A DNA stretch of 64,000 bases, taken from the NCBI GenBank assembly GCA_963580285.1, contig OY757016.1:46205124-46269123 (forward strand), in the 5' to 3' direction. The stretch's first letter is position 1. Every line of letters starts with the position of its first letter. The notes beneath the pieces were generated by a model. It searched no databases. It was not told the origin of the DNA and saw nothing but the letters and a program-made list of their open reading frames with translations. The position numbers and the translations under genes were made by a program. This DNA is from Lucinisca nassula. Taxonomy: Eukaryota > Mollusca > Bivalvia > Lucinida > Lucinidae. Below are positions 2,425-62,022 of this stretch, one piece after another.

Positions 2425-3930
2425 GAAGCATATCGTCGCCGCTTCGTCCGTGCGTCCGTGAGTCCGTGCGTCCATGCGTCCGTCCCGCTCTTGTCTACGC
2501 GAATTCTCAGAAACTACTGGGCGGATTTCAGTGAAACTTCATGTGAATATTAAGTATCGAAGGTGGATGCGCATATCACCTGCGTGTTTTGGTTCGATGA
2601 TTATTCCAACAGTTATGGCCCTTTGATGAATTCTGCATGAATATATAGGGTACTGTTCGTTTCCACGCGAATTCTCAGCAACTACATGCAGAAATTCAAC
2701 GAAACTTCAATGGAACCTAAAGCAGCAATAGGGGATGCGCATATTATCCGTGCTATCTGGTTAGATGATTCATCACAGAGTTATGGAACTTTGTTTAAAG
2801 CTGCAGTGTATGGTCACTGTTGCTATTTTTAGAAAAAACTTTGTCATCACTCTGGTGCCTACATTTATTGATGGATTTTAATATAACTTCACACAACTGT
2901 TGGGTATGATAATATATTGAGCATGTTCGACTTTCAGGGTCCTGGGCTGAAGGTCAAGGTCACTGTGGCTATTTATAGAAAAACTTTGTTTTCGCTCTAG
3001 TGCCTACATTTATTGATGGATTTTAATATAATTCCACACAAATGTTGAGTATGATAATATCTCGAGCAAGTTCAACTTTCAGGGTCCTGGGCTCAAGGTC
3101 AAGGTCACTGTAGCTATTTTTAGAAAAAAAAAAACAATGTCATCGCTCAAGCGTCGTCATTTGCTGATGGATTTTAATATAACTTCACACAAATGTTGGG
3201 TATAATAATATCTCGAGCAATTTCAACTTTCAGGATTCTGGGGTCAAGGTCAAGTTCACTGTGGATATTTTTAGAAAAAAAAAACGTTGTCATCGCTCTA
3301 GTGCCTACATTTATTGATGGATTTTAATATCATTTCACACAAATGTTGAGTATGATAATATCTCGAGCAAGTTCAACTTTCAGGGTCCTGGGCTCAAGGT
3401 CAAGGTCACTGTGGCTATTTTTAGAAAAAACTTTGTCATCGCTCTAGCGTCGTCATTTGCTGATGGATTTTAATATAACTTCACACAAACGTTGGGTATA
3501 ATATCTCGAGCAAGTTCAACTTTCAGGATCCTGGGGTCAAGGTCAAGGTCACTGTGGTTATTTTTAGAAAAAACTTTGTCATCGCTCTAGTGCCTACATT
3601 TATTGATGGGTTTTAATATAATTTCACACAAATGTTGGGTATGATAATATCTCGAGCAAGTTTGACTTTCAGGGTCCTAGGCTCAAGGTCAAGATCACTG
3701 CGGCTTTTTTTTTTAAAAAAAACTTTGTCATCGCTCTAGCGTCGTCATTTGCTGATGGATTTTAATATAACTTCACACTAATGTTGGGTATGATAATATC
3801 TCAAGCAAGTTTGACTTTCAGGGTCCTGGGCTCAAGGTCAAGATCAATGCGGCTAATTTTAGAAAAACTTTGTCATCGCTCTAGTATCTACATTAGCTGA
3901 TGGATTTTAATATAATTTTCGAACCCGTCT
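2425..3930. repeat. Tandem array E, 145-150 bp units
   Basis: Starts with a (GTCCGTGC)-like simple repeat at 2445-2485 and two diverged leader units containing ACGCGAATTCTCAG (2500 and 2658). Then come eight units; the GATGGATTTTAATAT block recurs at about 2870, 3015, 3166, 3316, 3462, 3605, 3754 and 3899. From the second unit on, units alternate between CCTACATTTATTGATGG and CGTCGTCATTTGCTGATGG versions, giving a higher-order period near 295 bp. Most units carry AAGGTCAAGGTCA. Confidence 0.9.
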
Positions 3931-4640
3931 GATATTTTATATGCATGTAAAGGCACCCAATACGGAACCATACCTGGAGACAGTCCTATGAGGATTGCCT
4001 CTGTGTACGTGAGTAAGTTTTCAATAATTTGTATTAAACAGTTTTACCCAATTAATATAGCTAAACTACCACCCATGATCTTGGGGTATGGTATCGTACC
4101 TGAAGACACTTCCTTTCATTTATTCCGACTTTTGTATTGCTGATGTTTGTATGACAGTGCCATCAGGTAAGCTAATCTGTCCACCGACAGGTTTTGTTAT
4201 ACTCCATTTTTAAGTACAGTGAGTATACACAGTATACTGCTCTTTAACTGGGATAATGTTTCCTGTTCCGACTATTGCACGTTCGGGGAGCATCCATCGG
4301 TTTCAACGATATTCTTGTTTGTGTTATGAACATGCTGATTGTCAATGCAGCATTGTCGAGAAATTATAGACGGAAGCATCGATAATGGTGGGTGGTTACG
4401 CATTCGATCTATATGAATAATAAGAAAACTGACAGCTATCAAACCGAATCCGACGGTTAAGCATTATTTCGTTTGGTAGGCGTTAATAAGATTGAATATG
4501 TTAATAAATCGCGAAATATGGATTACATTGAATACCGTCAAGTTGTTAAATGAAGATAATAAACATTTTTGTCCTTTGTTCATTCGTTCATTCTTTCGTT
4601 CGTTTGTTTGTTTCAAAATGAGTATCAGCTTTACAAACAA
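3931..4640. other. Unassigned sequence
   Basis: No gene or known repeat recognised. It includes the right flank of array E. Confidence 0.5.
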
Positions 4641-4917
4641 GGCAACGCAAGCGAAGCATCCCCTTACAACTGCATTCAACACATCAACATCTAAATCCAA
4701 TCTGATAAAGCGTTATGGATACCTTTGATGCTTCTATGATGATCACGTCGTCTTCTATCCTGTTCATAAGGTTTTTAATATCAAGTCCATTGTGGCATTG
4801 GCATTTGACCATTGACCTTGATAATCAACAGGGTTCATCCCCTCTCCATGTGGAAAATTGTGTAAGGTTTGATGTTTCAATGATGATAGCTTTGTCTTCT
4901 ATCCAGTTCACAAGGCT

Positions 4918-4957
<40 letters not shown>

Positions 4958-5000
4958 ACGCACGCACGCACGCGCGGCAACGTTGATAATAATGTTTACG
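4641..5000 (+). mobile_element. Pearl/HINE-like element, short diverged copy
   Basis: Same layout as 46906-47987. It starts with a GGCAACGCAAGCGAAGCATCC-type leader, has about one and a half diverged 145-bp units (TTTGATGCTTCTATGATGA, AAGTCCATTGTG, TTGACCTTGATAATCAA), then a (CA)n tract at 4918-4952 and CACG-rich tail to 4975. The leader match places both copies in one family. Confidence 0.75.
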
Positions 5001-7120: not shown

Positions 7121-7236
7121 ACATGTTTTTTTTATGATTTGCTTGTTTGTATTGGAGTTTAACGGCCCAGAAAACATTATTTTAAACAATTTTTGAGCCG
7201 ATCAGCTTACCTATTGACACTTTTCCTGGGCAGGCT
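7121..7236 (-). mobile_element. SINE B, 3' half, left of T1
   Basis: Tail half of a minus-strand SINE B, from the tail complement TTGGAGTTTAACGGCCCAG to CTTTTCCTGGGCAGGCT. It stops at the T1 terminus. The missing head half begins at 19806 with AGGCT. The SINE's own duplication (ACATGTTTTTTTTATGA at 7121; ACATATTTTTATGA at 20021) is found at the far sides of the two halves. Confidence 0.9.
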
Positions 7237-7740
7237 CACCGTGTAGCATCGACTCCGGAACTTGTTACTGAAAAGTACCAGCGAAATCAATATTTATCGC
7301 AAGCATGGCACGCAGTAAGGTAGGTAAAAAGCTGTTTACAGGTTTCTACAGGATTCTGCCATTTAAAGCAAAATGGATATGTGTCGGAGAGATATCTAGT
7401 TCATGCCTGCTTTCATGATTCTGATAACATCTCACTGGAAATCGCTAAACAAACTGAAATATTGACAGCTGGTACCAAGAACAAATAATCTTTTTCGTGG
7501 AAAGTACTGGTTTTTGCTTTGATTCACGACCACTGGCCTTCTTTTTTCCATGCCGGAACATTCAGAAGGTTAGAAAAGTTGTTGTGTATAAGTTTTAATT
7601 GAAAGGTTCGCTTTATGCTGCAGTTTTCTTTCAGAAAACACAAAACGATGGAGTACGGCAACTTGGATTTTTAAGTACGGCAACTTGGGGAAAATGCTGA
7701 ATTAACAGTACGTCAACTTGTATAACAAAATTGCCACTGA
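7237..7740 (+). repeat. T1 left terminal/subterminal inverted repeat
   Basis: 45-bp terminal block 7237-7281, then poorly conserved sequence, then three iterons at 7651 (GAGTACGGCAACTTGG), 7673 and 7706. These iterons are plausible transposase-binding sites. Confidence 0.8.
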
Positions 7741-8240
7741 AAATTACTGACAGCCTTTTAACATCGTTGTGAACGAACAACCATGATTATTATCATGTTT
7801 GGTTTCATCATTCAGCCAGGGATTGTTTCTAATGCTAGTACTGATCGTAAACCAATCTATTTGTGCATGTAACAGCTGAAATTGTGAAATATACACCAGG
7901 GCCATATTTCCTCTTGAGAATTATTTGTCATTGCTTTTGCTTTCTTTTACTACTGTAAATACTTAGGAAATAATGTAGAAACAAAACAAAGTCTGCCCCC
8001 TTTTAACGGAACTTTACCTTCTTGAAATGAAGTTATTTTTTTTTTCTACGAAATAAAGTGTCTTTTTAATGTGCTCAAATAGTTTCTACGTCGTTCTTGT
8101 GATAGTTATTTTATGTTATTATGTATTTATTCCTTTTGCGAAAGAGACTTTATTCTAACGAATGTCCTGGTGTATGCATGCTATACTCCAGTTATTTTAA
8201 ATCATGACTGCGGCTATTATTTGTTCGCTTGTTTGCATTC
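7741..8240. other. Unassigned T1 interior
   Basis: AT-rich, no recognised gene. Possibly original T1 sequence. Confidence 0.4.
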
Positions 8241-8466
8241 CGAAAACATGCCTATTCAAATATATTGAAAATTTTTCCACCCAAAAAAATTGAAAATTTT
8301 CAGATAAAAAATCTGATATTTTACATATTGCAGTTCAGAACATATAGTGTGGGCACTGCTTTTGGACAGAAATGCGAAAAATAATGTAAACCCCTAAAAA
8401 CCCCAGTTTTAAGTAATCAATAAAATTGGGGTTTATGGCGGTCAAAATTGAATAGGCATGTTTTCA
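8241..8466 (+). mobile_element. M1 MITE, diverged copy
   Basis: Ends CGAAAACATGCCTAT and the complement at 8450-8466. The central hairpin is decayed, but the AACCCCAGTTTTA block and GGTCAAAATT near the right end identify the family. Confidence 0.75.
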
Positions 8467-8518
8467 TGCTGGTCTTCCGTAAGTCTTTTGAAATCGCATT
8501 CTATGTTTTGGATAATGG

Positions 8519-8561
<43 letters not shown>

Positions 8562-8563
8562 TT
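8519..8563. repeat. (TTA)n microsatellite
   Basis: About 15 uninterrupted TTA units. Confidence 0.97.
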
Positions 8564-8665
8564 CGAAATCGACGGGCACGAAAGTGCCTGCATGTTGCAT
8601 TCTTCATCTTGAATATTCTATCTATTTCACATTTGTACAGTTAAGCAACGACACAGACAACAAAA

Positions 8666-8777
8666 TAGAAGTGGAGGCACTGATCATGAATCAATACAAT
8701 TAACCCACAGCCCCCAGCAGTGACAACAAAGGAAAGAAACACAAAAATGAAAAACCAGACTCTGATGGAAACACATA
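8666..8777 (+). repeat. Family D fragment (start of consensus)
   Basis: AATAGAAGTGGAGGCACTG through ACTCTGATGGAAACACA; first 110 bp of D, ending at an M1 hairpin. Confidence 0.75.
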
Positions 8778-8937
8778 GATTGTGGATACTCATTAGAACC
8801 GCCTCGCCGAGGCCGTTCTAACGAGTTACTACAATGTATATTTGTAGCAGAAATATGGAAACTTTCATTTTTTGTCTGAAATTTTCATTTGTGGTGGTAT
8901 ATTTTCCAATATATTTCAATAGGCGTGTTTTGGTAAT
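8778..8937 (-). repeat. M1 MITE, partial
   Basis: Central hairpin TTAGAACCGCCTCGCCGAGG, then the right half to the terminus AATAGGCGTGTTTTGG. Confidence 0.75.
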
Positions 8938-8941
8938 GTAC

Positions 8942-9133
8942 GCGACATTGAGCTGACATCTCAAGCCCTTCTGCCCAATGAACCCAATAGGGTTTATATG
9001 CATGGATGGTCCGACTCGGACAACTTTCCTGAGCTGGCTCAGAACCCTCTTAGCAGTTTACCAATGGTCTCAGTTCTGCGTGGAAGAGTAATGTAGCCAT
9101 ATCTATTTCTTCAAGCCCCGAAGGGCGGTGGCC
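8942..9133 (-). repeat. SINE A fragment lacking its tail
   Basis: Starts at GACATTGAGCTGACATCTC and ends at the head complement CCCGAAGGGCGGTGGCC. The ACGTTAAAC tail is missing, so it was cut after insertion. Confidence 0.75.
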
Positions 9134-9355
9134 AACTAGCCCATGTAATAACACCCATGCGTATGCAAATGCAAATCAAGAAAATAAATGGTGTTTATAA
9201 TATAAATATTAAACTACTGTTCAAAACATCACAACCAGCTCGTCGTGTCCTTGTACCCTTGCAGTCACTGTACAGCACATGCGGTATCGGCGTATGTTGT
9301 TAATATCTCGCCCAGTGAAAATATTTTTGAGATTGTTGCGTTAAAAATACCAGCA

Positions 9356-9604
9356 CGAAAACACGCCTGTATAATTTTGATCCCCTTGAACCCTACTTTT
9401 ATATAGTAAAACTTGGGTTTCTGGTGGTATACCTTATTTTTCTTATTTCTGCTCTAAAATATAGATTGTGGGTACTCGTTATAACCGCCTCGACGGTCTA
9501 TATTTTGAGCAGATAAAAGAAAAGATCACAATTTTTCATCTTAAATTTTTTGTATTTTTTTCGGCGATAAATGTGGCAATGTATTTGTATAGGCATGTTT
9601 GCGA
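9356..9604 (-). mobile_element. M1 MITE, full length
   Basis: TIRs CGAAAACACGCCTGT at 9356 and the complement at the right end. Inverted relative to 48440-48710. One arm of the hairpin is shortened (CGCCTCGACGG). Confidence 0.8.
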
Positions 9605-9699
9605 AATGTAAAACATGCATTTTTATATTATATTCTAACATTTTAAATGTCCTTGTCCGTCATTGTCAGTCCTTGTCAGTCCCAGTAGTGTTTAGTAGG

Positions 9700-9812
9700 A
9701 CCGTATATTTTTGTGCACAAATAATAAAAATAACGTTTACCCCTGTAAACCCCGGTTTTACTGTATAAAAGTGGGGTCCAAAGGGGTCAGAATAATAAAG
9801 ACTTGTTTTCAT
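9700..9812 (+). repeat. M1 MITE, right half
   Basis: TTTACCCCTGTAAACCCC through GGTCAGAATAATA and a decayed terminus CTTGTTTTCATG. Confidence 0.65.
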
Positions 9813-10514
9813 GTTGCCTAGACAGCTGTTACAATAGACAAGTGATTTTAGAACTATGTCAATCATCGCGAAACGTTGAATCTATCAGAACATCTGTCTG
9901 TACAAATTTTCTTTGTAATGGTCCAAATTTCTCTTGCATAGCGATGGACCACAACGTGTATATGGCATGATGTCAATACCCTTCACACGTTCACTTTTTA
10001 TATGCTGCAGCTAAGCGTAGAGTCTTTTTTTCGACTTTTGCAGCTAATGATTGCGTACAGATGCAGCTAATCGTACAGGGGCTAGTATGATAGGACCTGA
10101 ATAAAGCAGTACTTTTTTTGAAGGGAGGCAGACAGAAATAGCAAATGGGTGCTGAGATGTGATGGTTAATGATTGTTTTATGTCTACGCTTATTTAGAAT
10201 AAGTGTAAACTGGCCATAAGGCAGATAAAATGTGAAAAAAAATAATGGTCGCTGCGAGCGATAATGAAAAAAATCACTGATGCAGCACGAGAATCTTTTT
10301 ACTGTGCAGAACAGGGCACCTTATGATTCCAAATCGAAGCAAATTTGAAAAGGGATGACTCTTACCGTCCCAAGCATGTGTCATTTCCGGGTGTTAATAC
10401 CGAATTTTATTGATTTTTAGCGTTTTTAATAAATATCGTGTAAAGCAGCTAACGATTTTTGAGCGTACAGTATCAGCAGCTTCCGATTTCAGATACTGTA
10501 CGATGGTCAACTGT
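9813..10514. other. Unassigned sequence
   Basis: No gene or repeat recognised. Confidence 0.4.
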
Positions 10515-10945
10515 GAATAGGGTTCATTAGCATGGACGGGCCGACTCGCACCGCATTGCCTGGGCAGGCTTAGATCGTCTAAGGGGTTTACCAGTACTCG
10601 TGTGCGGGTCGGTTTCAGCTCCGCGTGGCAGCATCATGCAGCCCATCTATTTCAGCCCATCTATTTCTTCAAGCCCCGATGGGCGGGGGCTATCCACACT
10701 AAACTAACCCTCACACGAGTACTGGTAAACCGCTTAGAGGATCTGAGCCTGCCCAGGCAAAGCGGTGCGAGTCGGCCCGTCCATGCTTATAAACTCTATT
10801 GGTTTCATTGGGCGGCATGGCTTGAGATGTCATTTCATCTCAATGTCGGGTAAAAGTCCCACACAATTGGAAGTAACGTTTCCAAAATGACCTATACAGT
10901 GTTGACGGGGACGTTAAACCTCAAATCAAACAAACAAAACTCTCA
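10515..10945. mobile_element. Two SINE A pieces joined head to head
   Basis: 10515-10690 is minus-strand head and middle (ending GATGGGCGGGGGC). 10712-10945 is plus-strand middle and tail (ending CTCAAATCAAACAAACAAA). About 95 bp of the SINE is present in both orientations, making a long inverted repeat. A twin-priming inversion or fold-back rearrangement would give this. Confidence 0.8.
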
Positions 10946-11064
10946 CACTCTCCTTCTCTCCCCGATCTCCTCCCGCTCTCCCCTGTCTCCCTGTATTTCT
11001 CCCTCTCACCACCTCTCTGCCTCCCTCTCCCACTCACCCTTCTCACTTAACATAGCTGGAACAA

Positions 11065-11497
11065 CCCAGTCAGCAATCAACAACGGACCAACGTCGGACC
11101 GACAGCGATACAACGTTGCAACGTCGCATCGCTATCGGCCCACCGTTTGTTTGTTTGTAGCCTATTGGAGTTTAACGGCCCAGTCAACACTATTTTATGT
11201 CATTTATGAGCCGGTCAGTTGACCTGTCCACAATTTTCCTGGGCAGGCTTGTACGTAAGCATGTTATCCAGTTCAGTGCACATTCTTTCGCCAGAAACTG
11301 ACAACTGCCCTTCTTGAATCAGCAGAAGGGAGAGAATGACCGTAGAAAAGATTTCATGATCAATCTCCACGAAAGAATGTTGCCGAACCCGGCTAGTATC
11401 GAACTTGCGTCCTCCCGATCACCAGTCAAACGCGCATCCGACTGAGCTACAGAGGCGGCTCGGCCCGCCGTTGGCCCGTCATTCATTGCTGACTGGG
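11065..11497. mobile_element. Tiny TIR element interrupted by SINE B
   Basis: Ends CCCAGTCAGCAAT (11065-11077) and its exact complement (11485-11497). Without the SINE it would be about 110 bp, with GACCAACGTCGG / CCGTTGGCCCG inner repeats. Confidence 0.7.
11148..11459 (-). mobile_element. SINE B, full length, with target duplication
   Basis: tRNA-derived head on the minus strand (A box AGCTCAGTCGGATGC region, B box GTTCGATAC at the diverged site), middle with CGGTCATTCTCTCCC and CAGTTGTCAGTTTCTGG, and tail AGTGTTGACTGGGCCGTTAAAC. Flanked by TCGGCCCACCGTT (11135-11147) and TCGGCCCGCCGTT (11460-11472). Confidence 0.92.
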
Positions 11498-11825
11498 AGG
11501 CAAAGCCATATATATACATTGCCAGGGCTTTGAGGGCTTTATCTGCCCTGGACATAGAGGAGACCGGAAATAGTTGGTCCGAAAATTGTATTAATCATTT
11601 TTAGCTTGGCTGTTTTCGAAGAAAAACGACGAGGTATTGTCATAGCTCTGTCGTCGTCTGCGTCTTCGTCGTCGTGCAAAAACTTGGACTTTTTGTAATA
11701 TCTCTGTCATTGCACGACCCGCAGAAAAAGCAACCGACTGAAAAGCAACCGACTAAAGTCGATTTTTTCTAAGAGTGCCCTAAAATCACCGTGTCATTCT
11801 GTCATTCTGTCAGTCTGTCATTCTG
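11498..11825. other. Left flank of array H
   Basis: Contains CGTCGTCGT/CTTCGTCGTCG simple sequence (11640-11680) and a CATTGCACGACCCGC block that resembles the right end of the H element. No gene. Confidence 0.5.
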
Positions 11826-13975
11826 TCTGTCCGTCCGTAACCCGTTTGTGAAAATTGGTGATAGTGACTTAACCGCTTGGAATATTTAAACAATTTTTGG
11901 CATACTGATAGATATCAATGAGATCTAACCAATGAACTTACGAAATATTACATTCCATTTAGTATAGCCTCGCCGAGGCGAAAAATGTGAAAATTTTCTA
12001 ACATTTTTGAACTGCTTCTCCTCGAAAACCGTTGGGCCGATTGAAGTCAAATTTCATATGGAGCCTCTATGGGATGGGGGAAACCAAAATTTGCTCATGG
12101 GGTCAAGGTCACATGACCAAAATGGCCGCCAAGCCATATATGGTTTGTCTGTCTGTCCGTCCGTAACCCGTAAGTTAAAATTGGTGATAGTGACTTAACT
12201 GCTTGGAATATTTAAACAATTTTTGGCATACTGATAGATATCAATGAGATCTAACCAATGAACTTGCGACATATTACATTCCATTGAGTATAGCCTCGCC
12301 GAGGCGAAAAATGTGAAAATTTTCGAACTGCTTCTCCTCGGAAACCGTTGGGCCGATTGAAGTCAAATTTCATATGGAGCCTCTATGGGATAGGGAAACC
12401 AAAATTTGCTCATGGGGTCCAGGTCACATGACCAAAATGGCCGCCAAGCCATATATGGTAAAAACCCTTTAAAAATAGTCTTCTCCAGAACCACTGGGCA
12501 GATTTCCACGAAACTTGATAAATAGCATCTGGGATGTAGGCCTATTATAAATTGCTAAAATGGTGACCCTGGGTTGACCTTGACCTTCTTTGGGTCCGTC
12601 CGTAACCCGTTTGTGAAAATTTGTGATAGTGACTTAACCGCTTGGAATATTTAAACAATTTTTGGCATACTGATAGATATCAATGAGATCTAACCAATGA
12701 ACTTACGAAATATTACATTCCATTTAGTATAGCCTCGCGAGGCGAAAAATGTGAAAATTTTCGAACATTTTTGAACTGCTTCTCCTCGGAAACCGTTGGG
12801 CCGATTGAAGTCAAATTTCATATGGAGCCTCTATGGGATGGGGGAAACCAAAATTTGCTCATGGGGTCAAGGTCACATGACCAAAATGGCCGCCAAGCCA
12901 TATATGGTTTGTCTGTCTGTCCGTCCGTAACCCGTAAGTGAAAATTGGTGATAGTGACTTAACCGCTTGGAATATTTAAACAATTTTTGGCATACTGATA
13001 GATATCAATGAGATCTAACCAATGAACTTGGAAATATTACATTCCATTTAGTATAGCTTCGCCGAGGCGAAAAATGTGAAAATTTTCGAACTGCTTCTCC
13101 TCGGAAACCGTTGGGCCGATTGAAATCAAATTTCATATGGAGCCTCTATGGGATGGGGGAAACCAAAAATTGCTCATGGGGTCCAGGACACATGACCAAA
13201 ATGGCCGCCAAGCCATATATGGTCTGTCTATCTGTCCATCCGTAACCCGTTTGTGAAAATTGGTAATAGTGACTTAACCGCTTGGAATATTTAAACAATT
13301 TTTGGCATACTGATAAATATCAATGAGATCTTATCAATGAACTTGCGAAATATTACATTCCATTTAGTACAGCCTTGCCGAGGCGAAAAATGTGAAAATT
13401 TTCGAACTGCTTCTCCTCGGAAATCGTTGGGCCGATTGAAGTCAAATTTCATATGGAGCCTCTACGGGATGGGGGAAACCAAAATTTCCTCATGGGGTCA
13501 AGGTCACATGACCAAAATGGCCGCCAAGCAATATTTGGTAAAAACCCTTCAAAAATAGTCTTCTCCAGAACCACTGTGCAGATTTCCACGGAACTTGATA
13601 AATAGCATCTGGAACGTAGGCCCATCATAAATTGCTAAAATGGTGACCCTGGGTTGACTTTGACCTTCTTTGTGCCTAGGTCAAACTTTGACACATATGC
13701 TTTTGTGTTGGATTTTATCCTGCAAACGATTCAGAATACAGTACTAAAGTATAAGATATATTTTTGCTCCTTACGATAAGGCGCATTTATTGGGGAACCG
13801 TTTTATGTCCAGGTCACATGACCAAAATGGCCGCCATACCCATATATGGTAACACTTATAAAGCTGAAAGCTCCTTACAATAAGGCGCATTTATTGGGGG
13901 AACCGTTTTATGTCCAGGTCACATGACCAAAATGGCCGCCATACCCATATATGGTAACACTTATAAAGCTGAAAG
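11826..13975 (+). repeat. Tandem array H, about 320-bp units
   Basis: Each unit has CCGTAACCCG, GTGACTTAACCGCTTGG, GATATCAATGAGATCTAACC, GCCTCGCCGAGGCGAAAAA, GGGCCGATTGAAGTCAAATTT and GGTCACATGACCAAAATGG. CCGTAACCCG recurs at about 11834, 12161, 12600, 12925 and 13240; the 439-bp unit has an extra block with GGGTTGACCTTGACC. The array ends with a 104-bp direct duplication (13768-13871, 13872-13975). An inverted counterpart is at 62023-64000. Confidence 0.92.
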
Positions 13976-14580
13976 CATCCGGCGGGTCGTGCACTTCAGC
14001 TGAAGCACTGGTTACTGAACATATTTACTTGACAGTCGGACTAGTTGTTCATTATGAAAAGGGGAACTCATACCAATAGATGAGTTTAGGACGCCACCGG
14101 TCGCTAAGGAAATGCTACCCAAAGATTCCGTATTTTTGCGCATGCGCAGTTTTGTGTGGCAATAAATAACCGTTGTTCAGACTGATCCGATAGCAGTTAT
14201 TAATTTCTTTGAATTTGACAATTTTAAATATAGCGTAAGGTAAAGGTGACGTATGTCTTGCGTCACTGTGGTGTCCAACTGGTATTGGCTGACAATTGGG
14301 TAAGACCTGCTATCCCTACAGCAGGTAAGGGTAGAGGGGAGTGCTCTTATTCCTTTTGTTTCTACACTTCCATTCATTTTCCTCTTTCTCCTCTGTCCTT
14401 TACTTTAACCTACGATCTCTTCTATATTTTTTGTCCATTTCTCTGGGAGAAGAGATAAAATTACCCACATGGGTTGACATGTTGTTAAACCCAACACAAT
14501 TAATAATCGAATAATTAACTGACAATGGTCGCGTCTTTTTGCGCTAATCGCAAGACAACGATGCGACAGTGAAGATGATT
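13976..14580. other. H element right end and unassigned DNA
   Basis: 13976-14016 is the H terminus with the palindrome AGTGCTTCAGCTGAAGCACT (complement read at 62026). TGCGCATGCGCA at 14137 matches an NRF1-type site but stands alone. 14340-14500 is pyrimidine-rich and ends with GGTTGACATGTTGTTAAACC, like a retroposon tail. Confidence 0.45.
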
Positions 14581-14855
14581 GGTTGGTTGGTTGAATTGTG
14601 GTTTAATGTCCCCGTCAACACTTTTTAGGTCATTTTGGAGACGTTGCTTCCAGTTTTATGGGACTTTTACCCGACATTGAGATGAAATGACTTCTCAAGC
14701 CCTGCCGCCTAATGGAACCAAAATGCTTATATGCATTTGATGGTCTTTGCCTGGGCAGTCTTAGTCCTTCTAAGCAGTTTACCAGTAATCATGGACGGTC
14801 AGTTTCAGCTCTGCGTTGAAGCACAATCTATTTCTCCAAGTCCCTCAAGAATTCA
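14581..14855 (-). mobile_element. SINE A copy
   Basis: Minus strand; tail complement TGGTTTAATGTCCCCGTCAAC at left, shortened head at right. Confidence 0.8.
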
Positions 14856-15240
14856 AGGACGCGTCAATTATCCACATATTCAAACGGAAAGGAAATCCTC
14901 AGTTGTGTGGCAATCAACGAGGCATCTCTTATTTTGCCAATTGCTGGGAAGTTTCTTTCAAGAAATTTACTTCACCGACTGAATGAACACACTAAACAGT
15001 CCGAAAGCCAATGTGTGTTCAGAGTGTGTTCAGAAAGGACAGCTCTATGAAAAACTGACATGATCTTCACAGCAAGGTAGCTTCAAGAGCAATGTCAGGT
15101 TTGTTGAACTCACCAAATCATATGACGAAGTCGGCCGTGAGGGTCTTTGGAAAATTATGGCGAAGTTTGGTTGTCCGACAAGAATCAGTATAGCAACTGG
15201 AGGCCGTTTCGCGATGGCATGCTTGCACGGTTTCAAAACG

Positions 15241-15798
15241 TATGGGACGCCCTTTTCCTATTTATTCCCTATTTATAGATATCAATAATTATTTATGGAT
15301 ATCCACAATCCGAATAATGGATATCTATAATTATTTATGGATATCAATAATTATTAATGGATATCCATAATTCGATTTAATTTGTATATCCATAATTCGA
15401 ATTATAATTCTAATTATAATTCGAATTATGGATATTTATAAATCGATCTGAATTATGGACATCAATTAAATTGAATTATGGATATCCATTATTCGATTTA
15501 TGGATATCTGTAATTCAAATTATGGATATCCATAAATCAGTCGAATTATGGATATCCATAATTCAGAATTATGGATATCCATAGATCAGCCGAATAATGG
15601 ATATCCATAATTCGAATTATAGATATCCATAAATCGAATTATGGGTATCTATAAATCAATCTGAATTATGGATGTCAAAAAAATTGAATTATAGATATCC
15701 ATTAATCGATTTAAGGATATCCTTATTTCGAATTATGGATAACCATAAATCGAATTATGGATATCTATATGGGTTAAATAGTAAAACGGCACCGCATA
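15241..15798. mobile_element. TIR element made of palindromic ATGGATATCCAT repeats
   Basis: Ends are imperfect inverted repeats of about 30 bp: TATGGGACGCCCTTTTCC at left, complement of TATGCGGTGCCGTTTTAC at right, followed by CTATTTA. Nearly all the interior is a tandem of about 22 bp built from ATGGATATCCAT and AATTCGAATT, both perfect palindromes, so the region can self-pair in many registers. It splits the LINE X frame after ARFQ-equivalent residues. Confidence 0.85.
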
Positions 15799-15962
15799 AA
15801 AATGATGATGAGTTTTCTGATCCATTTCCTGTGACAATGGAGTCAAGCTGCTCCGCATAATGTTCATCTGGTGAACGCTGATGTCTTCTATGTCGGCTAT
15901 TTTGTTTTAAATGAATTAAGAAGAAAGTTTGCCTACCTTGGAAGCACTTTGTCAAGATCGTG

Positions 15963-16265
15963 TTTTGTTTGATTTGAGGTTCAACGTCCCGGCAAAAATG
16001 TAAAGGTCATTCTGGAGACGTTGCTTCCAATTTTGGGGGACTTCTACCCGACATTGAGATAAAATGACATCTCAAGGCCTGCCGCCCAATGGAACCAACA
16101 GGGTTTATAAGCATGGACAGTCCGATTCGCACTGCTTTGCCTGGGCAGGCTTAGATCCTCTTAGCGGTTTACCAGTAGACCTACTCGTGTGCGGGTCGGT
16201 TTCAGCTCTGCTTGGAAGAATCATGCAGCCCATCTATTTCTTCAAGCCCGGATGGGCGGGGACCT
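15963..16265 (-). mobile_element. SINE A inserted in LINE X
   Basis: Full-length minus-strand SINE A with duplication TCAAGATCGTG (15952-15962) / TCAAGAGTCGTG (16266-16277). The LINE X sequence resumes in the same place after it. Confidence 0.9.
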
Positions 16266-16430
16266 TCAAGAGTCGTGCACATTGATAATGAAGTCAATGC
16301 CAGGATTGCAAATATAACTGAAAGCTAGTGCAGCATCTGGCCGACTACGTGAAAGTGTTTGGAATCGAAGTGGAATACGGCTTGACACAAAGCTGAAAGT
16401 CTACAGAGCTTTTCTTAGTTCAGAGTAATT

Positions 16431-16914
16431 GGCCTTCGACCAACTTGCCCCGCGGACCAACTAGCCCCGGTCTCCCCATCATACTATCTAGAAGAGAAAT
16501 GGGCAATGAATTCTCTAGGACCAGTATCCAGTATCTCGTAAATACCAAGAAACTATTTTGATGACAATAACGAAAAATTCCAAAGGCTCCTTTAATAGAC
16601 CCGCTCCTCCTCATCCCCCACACAGCCCTCCAACAAATAGTAATAAATAAATAAACACGCACGCACGCATGCCACTCTTTCTTAAATGATTTAAAACAAA
16701 TGTTTGTAATTAAACAATGAAATAAGGTACACTCTATTCGAAACCGTGTGTGTTATGGAACTGAGATTTGATAAATAAATAAAAAAATAAACATTCCGCA
16801 CCTGTTGCAAGCACAGAACATAGACACATGACCCACTATGCTCCAAATGCATTAGGACGATCGGGCCTTATAAGCTAACTAGCACCATCATAGCCCATGT
16901 CAACCACCAGGAAA
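16431..16914. other. Unassigned sequence
   Basis: No gene or recognised repeat. Confidence 0.4.
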
Positions 16915-17328
16915 TCATTTGTTTGATGTGAGGTTTAACGTCTCTGTCAACACTACATAGGTCATTTTGGTGACGTTGCTTCCAACTTTGTGGGATTTTT
17001 ATCCGATATTGAGATGATATGACAATCCATGCGGCCGCTTGCAATGAAACCAATAGGACGGTTCGATACGCACCACTTTAGCAGGCATAGATTCTTGAAG
17101 CAGTTTACCAGTAGATTCAGCTCTGCATGAAACCGACCGCACAGGTCAGAGTAGGCTACTGGTAACCGCAAAGTAATGCGAGTCGGACAATCCATGCATA
17201 TTTATAAAACCCTATTCTGAGTATTGGTTTCATTGGGTAAAGTCGCACAAAATTGGAAGCAACGTCTCCAAATTGACCTAAATAGTGTTGACGGGGACGT
17301 TAAACGTCAATTCAAACAAGCAACTTAG
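16915..17328. mobile_element. Second head-to-head SINE A pair
   Basis: 16915-17133 is minus-strand (tail outward left), 17134-17328 plus-strand (tail outward right). Both have lost the extreme head, and they meet near GACCGCACAGGTCAGAG. The result is a roughly 200-bp-armed inverted repeat with SINE tails as its ends. Confidence 0.75.
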
Positions 17329-17919
17329 ATGAATCGGCTACCGATACAGGCTAGGCCTATGCCTAGATTTTACCCGACCATAAGACATGAGTCGGAGTAA
17401 GCTCCCTTGCGTATTTAAATTGATGACGTCATCGATAACTACGTAACACATAAATAATGACAACACAGTGTGCAGGTATGACAGATATTTGTCGGCTTTC
17501 ATTATTTAACTTGGACCTGTCCGTTCCCTCTATGACTTCTTCACAGCGCCGATGGAATGAAACAACTTTGATGCAAACAGGTTTACTAGATTTTTATTTT
17601 TCCCCATTCAAAATGTTTCGTTTTTTGCGCCTTGCAATCGGTCAAAGTAAATCTAAACCAACAAAACATGTGAGTCCTCATGTCTAAAACGTGTTTTTAT
17701 TACAATAAATACCCGCAATCTCAACCTCCGTGCATAAAATATTTATCTTCAGCATTAGAGAGTAGCTACGAATTCTTAGCTACGAAATTCGTAAGTCATT
17801 TAACTTAGGAAGACGTTAGTGAAACGCACCCGTGATTTTCTTAAGAATTTCGTAAGTCGAGTTCTTAAGTCTACGAATTTCGTAAAGTTACGAAGTTTAG
17901 TGAAACGGGCCCCAGGTGT
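17329..17919. other. Unassigned sequence with short palindromic motifs
   Basis: 17757-17916 is dense in TTACGAAATTCG/CGAATTTCGTAA motifs and ends GTGAAACGGGCCCC, typical of the edge of a small DNA element. The other edge was not found. Confidence 0.45.
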
Positions 17920-18180
17920 TTAGGTATAATAACAATAACAAGGTGCCTAGAACTGATCCTTGCGGTACACTTGAAGTAACTGGAACCTCATCTGAGGGCT
18001 CACCTTCAAGTTCAACTGCCTGACCTCTTCCAATCAGAAAAGACTTAACCGACTGGATAGTTAATCCATGTTACTGTTTCGATGTACCTGTAGCTTGCGA
18101 AGGAGCTTCAGGTGATTCACCTAGCCAAAAGCCTTGCTAAACCCAAGATAAGAACTATTTGTTGACCATTTAATCATGAT
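17920..18180 (-). pseudogene. LINE Y reverse transcriptase relic, inverted 5' part
   Basis: On the minus strand the translation gives FSKAFGxVNHLKLLRKLQ, SFLIGRGQAVELEGE and VPQGSVLGTLLLLLYLN, i.e. RT domains 3-4 of a CR1/Jockey-like LINE. Stops and frameshifts are present. Its continuation is in the opposite orientation at 18393. Confidence 0.85.
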
Positions 18181-18392
18181 CTGACAAGGTCATGGGTGTC
18201 ACAAGATCTGCACTCCAAGGCAGTTAAGTATTTCGCGATCATTAGGTATGTCCAAATCAAATCAAATCGAATTTACTTCTCTCCGGTTATACAATATGAT
18301 AACATGAGAACCAAAACGTTGTACAAACATACGGTTTCACGGCGGCACAATGTCACAGAGAAAAGATGTAGGACATAAACTTGAATCCTTCT

Positions 18393-19130
18393 AAACTTTA
18401 ATCCTTCTAAATGCCAGGTCCTTCATGTTACCCGACGTAAGAACCCTATCCCAAATGTGTACCTCTTGCATTGCACCAGAAGTAACTTGGGGTCACCATC
18501 TCTGATGATCTAAACAGCAGCCCCCACATTGACAACAGAACTACGAAAGCAAATCAGACCCTTTGATTCTTGAAAAGAAACATTCGGGTCCATAATAAGG
18601 ACCTGAAATCAGTTGCATATAAGACTCTTGTCAGGCCGCAGCTGGAGTATGCGTTCACTGTATGGTATCCCCACACTGCCACTGACATATACAAAGTGTA
18701 AGCAGTCCAAAGAAGGGCTGCCAGGTGGGCAACACATGACTATAGCTCCTTGCATACAGACAGATTTACACCCTCACAGACTACTACAAGTACACCTTCT
18801 TTCCGTGGACCATTATTCACTGGACTGCTCTACCTGCCTATGTTGTAACGCTTCCTACTCTGGCTCAGTTTAGCAGTGCTGAACTAGCCTGATGGCTCAT
18901 GCTTCTCCTTAAAAGACCCAATTCTGTTTTTTATCTTTTAACTGTACTAACACTCTCTTTTCCCACTGTACAAACCCATTTCACCAACTTTCCTTTCCTT
19001 TTATTTCAGCTAAGACCCTTCAACACTTGGTTCGCCGGAACCCGTCTTATGTCCCACTCTGGGGTTTAGACGTACTGGAAGAAAGAAAGAAAATCGACAA
19101 AAGTCGAAAAAAACTAGAGGACAACAACAG
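18393..19130 (+). pseudogene. LINE Y reverse transcriptase relic, 3' part and tail
   Basis: Plus strand gives FNPSKCQVLHVTRRKNPIP, NLGVTISDDL, HNKDLKSVAYKTLVRPQLE and AVQRRAARWATHDYS, the conserved C-terminal RT region, followed by a 3'UTR-like stretch ending in GAAAGAAAGAAAATC. Opposite orientation to 17920-18180 in the order expected for a twin-primed insertion with 5' inversion. T1 contains it. Confidence 0.87.
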
Positions 19131-19309
19131 GTCAATCTGTTGTCATTACCAATTTCTTATATCCCCAACCCTTCTGTCCCTTTAAAATTACTGATAAAAA
19201 GGAGACCGACAATGAAAGTAACGACGAACCCAACAAAACTTTGTTTATATTAAGATTGACAGTTGTAAAACTATTTAGAACACTTGTCCGCCATAGCACT
19301 TTATGTATA
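19131..19309. other. Unassigned sequence
   Basis: Short gap between LINE Y and the T1 right subterminal region; nothing recognised. Confidence 0.4.
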
Positions 19310-19805
19310 ATTGTTCAAATCAAATCGCCGTACTGTTCCCAGCAAACTGCCGTCCAGTATTTTACCTGGTGACGCAAATTGCCGTACTCTGGCCTTCGCG
19401 CGTTTCGGCTTGTTTATTCAGTCACAATATTCTTTTGGGGGAAAAACAACTAAAACATTACAGGCAGCGAAGGATTCGGCTTCTATTGATGCCCTTTAAT
19501 TGAAGATTGTCAAAGCCGTTTCTGTAATAAATTCACAGATTGTTAAAGCTGTCATGAATTTTCGCGGTACCAGCCATGTACCAGCCGACTCATTTGTGTG
19601 TTTAAATGGCAGCTGACAAAGCTTTCCAAAATTTCTTTTTAAGAATTTCAGAGAAAAATAAGTTGAGTAAATATGGGAAGTGAGTTTAAGTTCTGACACT
19701 ACGTAATAACGCCAACTTAAGCGATTACCTACCGTCGGTATAATCATTTTCCTCATTTATCTGGTACTTTTGAGTAACAAGTTCCGGAGTCGATGCTACA
19801 CGGTG
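19310..19805 (-). repeat. T1 right terminal/subterminal inverted repeat
   Basis: Terminal 45 bp at 19761-19805. Iterons of AGTACGGC type in complement at about 19377-19389, 19345-19359 and 19321-19338. Confidence 0.8.
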
Positions 19806-20034
19806 AGGCTTATACGTAAGCGGTTAACCAGTACAGTGTACATTCTTTCGATAGAAACTGACAACTGCCCTTCTTGAATTAGCGGGAGGGAGAGAATGAC
19901 CGTATAAAAGATTTCATGATCAATCTCTACGAACGAATGTTGCCGACCCCGACAGGTATCGAACCTGCGTCCTCCTGATCACCAGTCAGACGCGCATCCG
20001 ACTGAGCTAGCCAGGCCGGCACATATTTTTATGA
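19806..20034 (-). mobile_element. SINE B, 5' half, right of T1
   Basis: Head half of the SINE B broken by T1, from AGGCTTATACGTAAGCGG to the tRNA-like head (B-box complement GGTATCGAACC; CATCCGACTGAGCTAG), then its duplication ACATATTTTTATGA. Confidence 0.9.
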
Positions 20035-20589: not shown

Positions 20590-21180
20590 CATTTAACCCT
20601 AAAATTCCGGTTTTTAAGCAAATAGTGTACATCAGACGCCGCGTTCTGTGCCGTCTGGTCTTGTTCTACACTGTTTACCAAACACAATCGTTGATTCTAA
20701 CACAACACTCTGGGCTTACTGCGGCTATTTTCTATAAATAAAAAGTTTTTCCCACAAGTCAGTGATAGTCACGCAGACTTTAGCACTGAAGAGTTTTTCT
20801 GTTAAGGAACTTTGGGTCGATTGACAAACAATCTACCAAAATAGCCGTGTTATTTGTTCCACTCTGATGTCAGATTTGAGGCGAAAGTATTGCACTGTAC
20901 TGGTTAACCGCTTACGTATAAGCCTGCCCAGGAAAAGTGTGGATAGGTAAACTGACCGGCTAAAAAATGACATAAAATAGTGTTGACTGGGCCGTTAAAC
21001 CGTTAAACTCCAAACAAACTGATGTCAGAGTGTTGCGTACTTGAAAGAGAGTTATCTTAAAATCTGGACTGAATCATCTGTTTGGTTTGGCAAACAGTGT
21101 AGACCCAGTTCAGACGCCGCAGATTGCGGTGTCTGTTCAGGGTCTACACTGTTTGCATAAGTTTCAAGAACTTAAGGATA
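20590..21180. repeat. Repeat P, interrupted by SINE B
   Basis: CATCAGACGCCGCGTTCTG, GGGTCGATTGACAAAC and GTCTACACTGTTTGC blocks recur at 48790-48860. Flanks the truncated SINE B at 20875-21018. Family nature unknown. Confidence 0.5.
20864..21029 (+). mobile_element. SINE B, 5'-truncated, with target duplication
   Basis: Only the 3' portion is present (GTACTGGTTAACCGCTTACG, GCCTGCCCAGGAAAAGTG, TAGTGTTGACTGGGCCG, short AAACAAA tail). Exact duplication CTGATGTCAGA at 20864-20874 and 21019-21029. Confidence 0.92.
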
Positions 21181-24150: not shown

Positions 24151-24792
24151 GGCATCAAGGGACAGTTTCGCATTTGAGAGTGGACGTTTTTTTAAATATT
24201 ATAGTAGGAGGGTCAATAATGGCATGGTTGCTCATAGAAATTGTGATATGTGGGTATTTTTTGCCAACGTGGGCTTATTTGCTGAGGATCTGTACTTTTA
24301 TGAAATGGAATACGACTCTAACATCCTAGCTGTCTGGATGCTGTGCAAGTTCAAGGTGTAGCGGCATATCTGAATTCACGAAGGTAGCTTTGGCACTAAA
24401 AAGTGGCTGTTTTTCAAAGAGGATTCCTGAAAAAAGTTTACTGGTTATGATATACTTTTCTGTGTATTTCTTTGCATGTGACTGAGTGTACATGACATTT
24501 AAACAGGTGCCAAGTATTGGTGTTTTGGGAGTAAATTCACAGGATCTGTCAAAATGAGGTGGAGTCATGCTTTTTTGTATGTAAAAAATAGTGGGTGGGT
24601 GAAATGATGCTGCTGTCAGCCTATGCAAACAGAGAAGTGTTTCTTTGGTATTCTGTTTTGATTTCATGCATGTGTGGATCACTTTGAAACCAAAACAGAA
24701 GTTATCGCTTTCTCCAGGAGTTGTCGATAACGATTCAAAAACTTGGTATGGCGCGGACCAAAAAGTGCTGCGATTAACTGTCCCCTGATGCC
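24151..24792. mobile_element. N1 TIR element, copy 2
   Basis: About 642 bp, left end GGCATCAAGGGACAGTT (one mismatch), right end exact. Same orientation as copy 1 and differing from it by scattered substitutions and short indels. Confidence 0.9.
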
Positions 24793-24818
24793 TAACACTT
24801 TCTGTATCGACTTTTGGA

Positions 24819-25860
24819 ATGTTTTATGAAACGATTTCAAAAAACGAATTCGTTATTAGAACCATGATTCGGCTAGCAGAGGCTCAACGTTGGAGAGCCG
24901 TTGGCATGCTCTCGTCCGGAAGTACGCAATTACAGACGGCAAATGATATGAAAACGTCACAGTCGGTTGTCATTCGACTATGGGCACGCTATCGTAGGAC
25001 AGGAGCAGTGGCGGGTTTGCAGAGAAGTAGACGCCCGAAAAGTACTAACGGGCACGATGACCGCCTTGTTGTCCATCAAGCGTTACACAACCGGGGACTA
25101 AACTCAGCAGATCTTCAGCAATACCTGCGCCGAGTAAGAGGGGTTAATGTCTCTTGACAGACGATCCGAAATCGCCTTCACACGAGTGATCTGAAGGCAC
25201 GGCATCCGCAAGTCGGACTGCCGTTGAAATCGTAGAGCACATTTTGCGTGGTATTCATTAATCAGTGTGCTCACGTTTTGTTCAGTGACGAATCCCGGTT
25301 TAACTTGGACTTTCGTGATGGTCGTAGAAGAGTCTGGCGTCGTACTGGTGACTGTTATACAGACTCGACTAGAGTTGCTCATGACCGATATGGAACAGGG
25401 TCTGTCATGGTATGGGGTGAGATCACCATAACTGGAAAAACAGACTAACATGTGTGCCAAGGCAGAATTACAGGACTGCACTGTCGTGATAACGTGTTGG
25501 CTCCTCACGTGCTACCGTTTGCTCGACGCAATGGTCGTAGATTCATCTTTCAGGACGTTAACGCTAGGGCTCACTGGGCGCGCGTCGTCACTTAGTACCT
25601 TCAACGGTAAACACTAAGTACCTTCAACGGTAAAATATTCGGACAAAATACCATGGCCTGCGATCAGTCCAGACTTATCTCCCATCGATCAAGTATGGGA
25701 CATCCTCGGGAAACGAGTCCGAAGCCGCGATCTTCCTCCAAGAAGAGTGGCTAAGGATCCCTCAGTTCACAATTAATTGGAAGTATGCGACGACGATGCA
25801 TTGCCTGCTGTGACAGTCGAGACGGCCCAACACGTTATTGAGGGTTTGTGAAAAATTACG
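24819..25860 (+). pseudogene. Tc1-like transposase, dead
   Basis: N-terminal helix-turn-helix region (QTANDMKTSQSVVIRLWARY, then GLQRSRRPKSTN) and NRLHTSDLKARHPQ are in one frame with the catalytic region LFSDESRFNL, GTGSVMVWGEI and FQDVNARAHWA. In-frame stops occur at 25155 and near 25230, 25446 and 25593. A 22-bp duplication (TAAGTACCTTCAACGG repeated, 25590-25632) shifts the frame, after which WPAISPDLSPIDQVWDIL is read; here D stands where Tc1 has the third catalytic E. Length, about 340 residues in all, fits the family. Not functional. Confidence 0.9.
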
Positions 25861-38613: not shown

Positions 38614-38953
38614 GAAGCATGGTTGTATTGTTTGTTTGTTTGTATTGGAGTTTAACGGCCCAGTCAACACTATTTAGGTCATTTTTGAGCCGGTCAGTTT
38701 ACCTATCCACACTTTCCTGGGCAGGCTTATACGTAAGCGGTTAACCAGTACAGTGCACATTCTTTCGCCAGAAACTGACAACTGCCCTTCTTGAATCAGC
38801 GGAAGGGAGAGAATGACCGTAGAAAAGATTTCATGATCAATCTCCACGAAAGAATGTTGCCGACCCCGGCGGGAGTCGAACCCGCGTTCTCCTGATCACC
38901 AGTCAGACGTGCATCCGACTGAGCCAACGAGGCCGGCTCGAAGCATGGTTGTA
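38614..38953 (-). mobile_element. SINE B, full length, exact 14-bp target duplication
   Basis: Body 38628-38939. Head at right: CATCCGACTGAGCCAACGAG complement of the A box, GGGAGTCGAACCC complement of the B box. Tail at left: TGTATTGGAGTTTAACGGCC with (GTTT)n. Duplication GAAGCATGGTTGTA at 38614-38627 and 38940-38953. Confidence 0.96.
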
Positions 38954-50596: not shown

Positions 50597-50600
50597 AGTT

Positions 50601-50853
50601 TGTTGTTTTTTCTTAGAGTTTAACGGCCCAGTCAACACTACTAAGGTTATTTTTGGGCCAGTCAGTTTACCTATCAATACTTTTCCTAGGCAGGCTTATA
50701 CGTAAGCGGATATTCAGTACAGTGCACATTCCTTCGCCAGAACTCTTGAATCAGCGGAAGGGAAAAAATGACCGTAGAAAATATTTCATGATCAATTTCC
50801 ACGAAAGAATATTGCCGACCTGGCAGGTATTGAACCCGTGTCCTCCTGATCAG
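50601..50853 (-). mobile_element. SINE B, diverged
   Basis: AGAGTTTAACGGCCCAGTC, CTATCAATACTTTTCCTAGG, AAAATGACCGTAGAAAATA and TATTGAACCCGTGTCCTCC (B-box complement). Confidence 0.85.
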
Positions 50854-61690: not shown

Positions 61691-62022
61691 AGGCAATGAT
61701 CAGGAATCGATACAATTAACCCACAGCTCCCATCAGCGACACCAAAGGGAAAAAACACAAACATGAAACAACATACCCTAATGGAAACACCAATAGCGGA
61801 AAGCCAAAAGGACAGTTACTTTCCCACAGAACGGCCAATAGGCTATCCAAAATAAAATAATATGAGCGACACAAACACCCAAAGACAAACCATAACGAAA
61901 ATTAACCGCGACAGAAGAACCGCCTTTGCAAGGTCAGCGGAAACGAATTCCACTGTGGGGCTTAACTCTATTTTACGAGGCCACAATCCTCGCCCTTACT
62001 TCCGTCGCGATTAAGACAAATA
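61680..62022 (+). repeat. Family D copy
   Basis: AATAGAAGTGGAGGCAATG to CGCGATTAAGACAAATAA, then abrupt change to the H element end. The left edge abuts LINE Z. Confidence 0.87.

What the first reader, a model, noticed from the sequence alone, without database searches (positions are those of the whole stretch)
7237..19805. 12.6-kb TIR transposon (T1) proven by a split SINE and two nested target duplications
The 45-bp inverted termini (CACCGTGTAGC..., one mismatch) are flanked by AGGCT. Outside them lie two exactly complementary halves of a single SINE B, and outside those lies the SINE's own duplication (ACAT-TTTTTATGA), 12.9 kb apart. Independent signatures agree on one insertion. No known transposase is seen inside.
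Basis: partly seen in the sequence, partly recalled or inferred. Interest (0 to 1): 0.9.

Follow-up and report, generated by a model that had tools for sequence, protein, structure and literature searches.

The report
Non-autonomous DNA transposon inside a SINE
This 12.6-kb stretch is one copy of a repeated mobile DNA element that inserted into an older SINE in a likely mollusc genome; no transposase was found in the copies examined, so an enzyme made elsewhere in the genome likely moves it, and apart from being a separate family it is of an ordinary kind.

Summary
The 45-bp termini (44 of 45 match), the AGGCT duplication and the split SINE are there, and the rejoined SINE aligns without a break to uninterrupted SINEs in the same window. 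The window's own genome could be searched. The first 33 bp of the terminus occur 248 times (131 + 117; reversed control 0). For an 18-bp terminus (312 places), the first 100 listed give 40 inward-facing pairs and no neighbour in another orientation within 50 kb. Of 24 full copies, 20 have an exact 5-bp target duplication.

T1's 12.6 kb is not its natural size. The family core is about 5.0 kb. T1 lacks 1.46 kb of it and has 9.1 kb of other, largely repetitive DNA there. The core holds a LINE-derived fragment but no transposase that Pfam recognises, so the family looks non-autonomous. A 14-bp motif points inward at about 416/471 bp from each end (23 of 24 copies at both ends).

The superfamily is unresolved. 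The 5-bp duplication fits hAT5 and Transib; target bases and subterminal motifs lean to hAT5, CAC/GTG termini to Transib. No partner transposase was found. It is a new family of a known kind.

The parts
7122..7138 (.). left copy of the SINE's own target duplication (imperfect)
   Evidence: ACATGTTTTTTTTATGA against ACATATTTTTATGA on the right
7139..7236 (-). left half of the interrupted SINE
   Evidence: continuous alignment of the rejoined SINE to intact copies at 38623-38937 and 11146-11449
7232..7236 (.). left target site duplication AGGCT (also the last 5 bases of the left SINE half)
7237..7281 (+). left terminal inverted repeat, 45 bp
   Evidence: same terminus in 20 other copies
7237..8773 (+). 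left part of the family core
   Evidence: 95% identical to copy L043 positions 1-1515
7652..7720 (+). three inward-pointing subterminal 14-bp motifs (starts 7652, 7674, 7707; 416, 438 and 471 bp from the left end)
8774..17913 (.). 9.14-kb interior foreign to the family core; its left and right borders are the ends of two other high-copy repeats
17914..19805 (+). right part of the family core
   Evidence: 94-95% identical to L043 positions 2973-4988, apart from one 139-bp segment absent here
17948..18067 (-). reverse-transcriptase-like piece, inverted relative to the next part
   Evidence: tblastn with P0003, E 5e-6
18395..18880 (+). LINE-derived reverse-transcriptase C-terminal fragment carried by the family
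   Evidence: tblastn with P0002 in three stretches; P0002 itself has no Pfam match but is 52% identical over 79 aa to P0003, which matches RVT_1 at E 7.7e-5, below Pfam's cut-off
19321..19388 (-). two inward-pointing subterminal 14-bp motifs (418 and 472 bp from the right end in this copy)
19761..19805 (-). right terminal inverted repeat, 45 bp
19806..19810 (.). right target site duplication AGGCT
19806..20020 (-). right half of the interrupted SINE, ending in its tRNA-Thr-like head (19942-20018)
20021..20034 (.). right copy of the SINE's own target duplication (imperfect)

Best explanation
T1 is one copy of a repeated terminal-inverted-repeat DNA transposon family that inserted into a SINE with a 5-bp target duplication, and it was likely moved by a cut-and-paste DDE transposase, probably of hAT5 type, supplied in trans. 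Shown here: inverted termini; 5-bp duplications in most full copies; an uninterrupted form of the target SINE elsewhere in the window; inward-facing pairs of the terminus in the genome; a core of about 5.0 kb; no Pfam-recognisable transposase; a LINE-derived fragment in 19 of the 20 copies first fetched; mirrored subterminal motifs. Inferred: non-autonomy; that the enzyme excises the element at CACCGTG and joins it to target strands staggered by 5 bp; that the 14-bp motifs about 416 and 471 bp from each end are its binding sites; that the LINE inserted with a 5' inversion into an ancestral element before the family spread; and that the 9.1-kb interior of T1 arose after this copy formed, by other repeats inserting together with loss of 1.46 kb of core. 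The hAT5 assignment is the weakest step (about 0.4 on its own).
For: Termini, TSD and split SINE. Genome: 131 + 117 exact 33-bp termini, reversed control 0; 164 + 148 exact 18-bp termini, control 0. The first 100 listed 18-bp places give 40 convergent pairs and 0 other-orientation neighbours within 50 kb, 24 of 40 being 4.7-6.4 kb long. TSD: 20 of 24 full copies exact 5 bp, 2 more match 4 of 5, 2 share only a 4-bp repeat. Core of about 5.0 kb in L043, L048, L049, L057. No transposase among 125 open pieces of T1, 107 from 20 copies, and 88 from L050 and L057. LINE-derived piece in 19 of 20 copies and in T1. Inward motifs at both ends in 23 of 24 full copies, none within two mismatches in the wrong orientation; the first of the two right-end motifs is better kept than background in two diverged relatives. 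T1's closest relatives differ by 0.022-0.026 (JC) in the terminal 600 bp. For hAT5: 5-bp TSDs exist in hAT5 (PMC12730594, passages); T at TSD position 2 in 14 of 20 and A at position 4 in 10 of 20 resembles the T/A rule of Hermes, which also has subterminal repeats (PMC10368747, passages); hAT follows TcMar among the richest superfamilies in a mollusc survey (PMC10294476, passages).
Against: No partner transposase was found. None of 150 scored hAT dimerisation-domain hits (404 candidates) lies within 50 kb of the 124 terminus places I had. The CAC start departs from the YARNG start that I recall for hAT. Copies were seeded with exact termini and those fetched first were pairs under 10 kb, so mutated and long copies are under-sampled. 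The excess of palindromic pairing over the 7-bp target was weak in the 20 exact-TSD sites (88 of 2000 random draws did as well). L064 keeps only about 22 bp of its left end, has no left motif, and still has an exact TSD, so the left motifs may not be needed, unless they were lost after insertion. The second right-end motif is not better kept than background in the diverged relatives (59% against 62%). T1's rearrangement could have preceded its insertion here; only the failure to find a second copy of its left junction argues otherwise, and 40 of 4270 candidates were scored.
Confidence: 0.8

Rival explanations
1. The family is moved by a Transib/RAG-type (CMCT) transposase rather than a hAT5 enzyme; the anatomy is otherwise the same.
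For: Both Drosophila Transib families in one survey make 5-bp TSDs, with the target motif CCANTGG, a 7-bp palindrome reaching one base beyond the TSD (PMC3276498, passages); here the target reads C-ATWAT-G as a preference on 31 left and 27 right ends, sides being assigned by base 34, which mislabels a few copies. CMCT elements mostly end in CA..TG with 2-5 bp TSDs (PMC12730594, passages). CACCGTG differs by one base from the RSS heptamer CACAGTG (recalled).
Against: Genome searches with the RAG1 family and with a Pinctada RAG1-like protein found one RAG1-like locus plus one chance-level hit, E 0.83; the 10 kb read around its first exon holds no such terminus. Both searches may be too insensitive for Transib. 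Transib was nearly absent from a mollusc survey, one element (PMC10294476, passages). The target is AT-rich, whereas hopper prefers GC-rich sites and GC-rich TSDs worked better for ProtoRAG (PMC8289069, passages).
Confidence: 0.25
2. The family belongs to another, possibly undescribed, superfamily with 5-bp TSDs.
For: No transposase of any kind was tied to these termini; the termini fit neither hAT5 nor Transib completely.
Against: Absence of a partner in a partial search is weak evidence; two known groups already explain a 5-bp TSD.
Confidence: 0.25
3. T1 is a naturally large (12.6-kb) cargo or autonomous element and the 5-kb copies are its deletion products.
For: It has intact ends and a TSD; 6 of 40 listed pairs are 11-43 kb apart, and none of those six was fetched.
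Against: Among the scored candidates the left junction of the interior is full length only in T1, and both borders are ends of other high-copy repeats; about half of the interior resembles repeats elsewhere in the window (4681 of 9140 bases); no transposase was found in it; the 5-kb copies share a central 1.46 kb that T1 lacks.
Confidence: 0.05

Closest known systems
hAT5 group of the hAT superfamily
   Same: 5-bp target duplication; T and A favoured at the second and second-last TSD bases; subterminal repeated motifs (known from hAT elements such as Hermes)
   Different: starts CAC rather than the usual hAT start (recalled); no hAT hit near the known termini; no coding capacity found
Transib (CMCT clade)
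   Same: 5-bp target duplication; CAC...GTG termini; 7-bp target motif with C and G just outside the duplication
   Different: AT-rich instead of GC-rich target; no Transib-like protein found in the genome by the two searches made; no coding capacity found
RAG-like (RAGL/ProtoRAG) transposons
   Same: CAC start, 5-bp target duplication, likely molluscan host
   Different: termini do not fit the protostome RAGL consensus CACTWMCAAACKTYKBB (AAA at positions 8-10 absent); no RAG1L/RAG2L match inside; the 10 kb read around the genome's RAG1-like first exon holds neither this terminus nor that consensus

Membership tests
TIR (cut-and-paste) DNA transposon | inverted terminal repeats shared by dispersed copies in inward-facing pairs | tested here: met
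TIR (cut-and-paste) DNA transposon | target duplication of constant length | tested here: met
   20 of 24 copies exact 5 bp; 2 match 4 of 5; 2 share only a 4-bp repeat
TIR (cut-and-paste) DNA transposon | empty target site | tested here: met
   paralogous uninterrupted SINEs for T1 only; orthologous site not testable
TIR (cut-and-paste) DNA transposon | own transposase (autonomous members only) | tested here: not met
   no transposase by Pfam in open pieces of T1 and of the other copies scanned; one DDE_Tnp_IS1 match at E 0.028 in 88 pieces is at chance level
hAT5 | 5-bp TSD | tested here: met
hAT5 | hAT transposase between the termini | tested here: inconclusive
   no hAT hit within 50 kb of 124 known terminus places, but only 150 of 404 candidates were scored and 312 termini exist
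hAT5 | terminal YARNG (recalled) | tested here: not met
   CACCG: third base C
Transib | CAC termini and 5-bp TSD | tested here: met
Transib | RAG1-core-like transposase | tested here: inconclusive
   only the separate RAG1-like locus found; sensitivity to Transib unproven
RAGL/ProtoRAG | protostome RAGL terminus consensus | tested here: not met
   consensus from PMC7204232 passages compared by eye with the terminus
RAGL/ProtoRAG | RAG1L and RAG2L genes inside | tested here: not met
   no RAG1 or RAG2 family in the Pfam scans

The most novel reading that the evidence does not exclude
The family answers to a transposase superfamily not yet described, one that makes 5-bp duplications at CATWATG-like sites and reads a pair of inward 14-bp sites placed with mirror precision 416-417 and 471 bp inside each end, far deeper than usual terminal recognition.
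Probability: 0.1. Interest if true: 0.6.

Novelty: new member of a known kind. Interest (0 to 1): 0.32.

Why it matters
One raw-sequence reading of nested duplications predicted a real transposon family with hundreds of termini. The family carries a LINE-derived fragment, and its mirrored subterminal sites make a concrete, testable prediction about where the unknown transposase binds. Finding that enzyme would decide between a 5-bp-TSD hAT and a Transib relative in a likely mollusc whose genome also holds a RAG1-like gene.

Tried and rejected
RAG-like transposon: suggested by CAC and the 5-bp TSD; rejected on terminus consensus and gene content. Autonomous partner through hAT hits: none near. 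Partner through odd copies: of six loci taken for odd or unpaired 18-bp termini, four are family copies (L064, L065, L066, L069) and two (L067, L068) are diverged relatives (67-81% over parts of their right ends); no transposase was apparent by eye in the ten open frames of at least 100 aa read from these two, which I did not scan with Pfam; one of them (L071) looks like a LINE reverse transcriptase. The 38 single-end loci L001-L038 match the family core over 453 to 1533 of their inner 1533 bases. Long diverged inverted repeats beyond 45 bp: weak similarity only, about 2 sd above the mean of 200 shuffles, the best shuffle scoring higher. Host naming: among the best 120 COX1 hits the named ones are insects, molluscs and an annelid-like entry at about 67-71%, one unnamed hit is at 93%; the RAG1-like protein points to a mollusc. 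Supplements and Repbase were not consulted.

Sampling: of the 40 convergent pairs, 22 were fetched whole (L039-L058, L064, L065; checked); the other 18 were counted by coordinates only. The first 20 were chosen as pairs under 10 kb with exact 33-bp ends. L061 comes from a part of the list beyond those 100 places. Four copies (L040, L046, L053, L064) were left out of the column-conservation count. In one search L064 was turned the wrong way round by my script; one search shows that its right end has the motifs and its left end does not.
Full report
Observation. The inverted termini at 7237-7281 and 19761-19805 match at 44 of 45 positions and are flanked by AGGCT. Outside them lie two parts of one SINE. 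Rejoined with a single AGGCT, they align without a break across the joint to intact SINEs at 38623-38937, 11146-11449 (which lies inside T1 itself) and 50599-50852, and to part of one at 20882-21000. The SINE's tRNA-Thr-like head is at 19942-20018 on the minus strand. Its own duplication is visible but imperfect.

Genome test. The window lies in an unnamed 2.93-Gb assembly, G000, which could be searched. The first 33 bases of the terminus occur 131 times forward and 117 times reverse, with none for the reversed control pattern; the first 18 occur 164 and 148 times, control 0. Only the first places are listed. Among the 100 listed for the 18-mer there are 40 pairs facing inward within 50 kb and no neighbours in any other orientation within 50 kb; lengths run from 3.6 to 42.9 kb, 24 of 40 between 4.7 and 6.4 kb.

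Target duplication. I fetched 20 pairs under 10 kb from the list and three more copies later (L061, L064, L065). With T1 that is 24: 20 have an exact 5-bp duplication, two match at 4 of 5 bases (L041, L061), and two share only a 4-bp repeat (L043, L046). On 31 left and 27 right ends the target reads C-ATWAT-G as a preference, not a rule; sides were assigned by base 34, which mislabels the few copies that have C on both ends. In the 20 exact sites T is at position 2 in 14 and A at position 4 in 10; a direct test of palindromic pairing was weak (88 of 2000 random draws reached it).

Anatomy of the family. Unexpanded copies are about 5.0 kb (L043 4988, L049 4995, L057 5013, L048 5018). T1 matches L043 at positions 1-1515 and 2973-4988 at 94-95%, apart from a 139-bp segment absent in T1; positions 1516-2972 are missing, and 9140 bp of other DNA (8774-17913) stand there instead. 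Among the 40 candidates scored of 4270, the left junction is full length only in T1; from 8769 inward the sequence is the end of a repeat, 39 of whose 45 other listed matches are 97-100% identical and six 73-75%. The right border is likewise the end of a high-copy repeat (39 other listed matches, 38 at 97-100% and one at 93%; 40 of 986 candidates scored). About half of the interior (4681 of 9140 bases) resembles repeats elsewhere in the window. So T1's length is likely secondary. The TIR mismatch at position 34 is a family feature: G left and C right in 16 of 20 copies. In the terminal 600 bp T1's closest relatives differ by 0.022-0.026 substitutions per site, and the median between copies is 0.046-0.047, so the spread is fairly recent; no calendar date is claimed.

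Coding content. Open pieces of T1 (125 of at least 45 aa), of 20 copies with their short flanks (107 of at least 88 aa) and of L050 and L057 (88 of at least 44 aa) gave no transposase in Pfam. The only strong match was a reverse transcriptase (RVT_1, two of 107 pieces, best E 1.8e-13); other listed matches are at chance level, among them DDE_Tnp_IS1 at E 0.028 in one of 88 pieces. P0002, an open piece typical of the copies, has no Pfam match of its own, but is 52% identical over 79 aa to P0003 from copy L046, which matches RVT_1 at E 7.7e-5, below Pfam's cut-off. The family therefore likely spread as a non-autonomous composite.

Subterminal motif. AGTACGGCAACTTG or a form within two mismatches points inward from both ends. 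In typical copies it lies 416, 438 and 471 bp from the left end and 417 and 471 bp from the right end; shifts in some copies suggest indels nearer the tip. In the 24 full copies none within two mismatches points outward, and 23 of 24 have it at both ends. The exception, L064, keeps only about 22 bp of its left end and has no left motif, yet has an exact 5-bp duplication: either the left sites are dispensable or they were lost after insertion. In two relatives whose right ends are 67-81% identical over parts, the first motif is 91% conserved against 62% for background (averages of the two); the second is not (59%). A transposase-binding role is inferred, not shown.

Mechanism and class. Constant 5-bp duplications, a clean empty site and inverted termini fit cut-and-paste transposition by a DDE enzyme acting in trans. 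Two known groups make 5-bp duplications: hAT5 (PMC12730594, passages read) and Transib (PMC3276498, passages read). hAT5 is favoured by the T/A target bases and subterminal repeats, as in Hermes (PMC10368747, passages read), and by the wealth of hAT and near absence of Transib in a mollusc survey (PMC10294476, passages read). Transib is favoured by CAC/GTG and by a 7-bp target with C and G outside the duplication. Neither partner was found: none of 150 scored hAT hits is within 50 kb of the 124 terminus places I had, and RAG1-type searches found one RAG1-like locus with no such terminus in the 10 kb read around its first exon. I commit to hAT5 at about 0.4 and leave the rest open.

Verdict. 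It is a new family of a known kind. I ran six paper searches, none with the family's own sequence, so I do not claim it is unpublished.

Noticed in passing
G000:C13:93442368-93457030 (loci L059, L060, L062): A RAG1-like gene: an 809-aa open exon with RING finger and RAG1 core (PDB 6B40 amphioxus RAG1L, E 3.6e-124), and a second exon piece with a CxxCxxxGHxxxxC tail (read by eye) like the CTT* motif of PMC7204232; 61% identical to a Pinctada imbricata protein and the only such locus that two genome searches found. RAG2L was not looked for, termini only in the 10 kb of L062.
   Followed up: partly
window 8769 onward and up to about 17916: Ends of two other high-copy interspersed repeats; 39 of 45 and 38 of 39 other listed matches are 97-100% identical, so probably young families.
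   Followed up: partly
window 11674-13694: Tandem array of about 315-bp units inside T1; matching units lie outside T1 at about window 62,000-64,000.
   Followed up: no
window 15268-15777: Minisatellite of a self-complementary unit of about 22 bp (GAATTATGGATATCCATAATTC-like).
   Followed up: no
window 24789-25157 (+): Open frame resembling the N-terminal part of a Tc1/mariner transposase, judged by eye from its translation.
   Followed up: no
G000:C696: Mitochondrial COX1 with 7 in-frame TGA under the standard reading, uninterrupted under the invertebrate mitochondrial code; named relatives at about 67-71% among the best 120 listed, one unnamed at 93%.
   Followed up: partly
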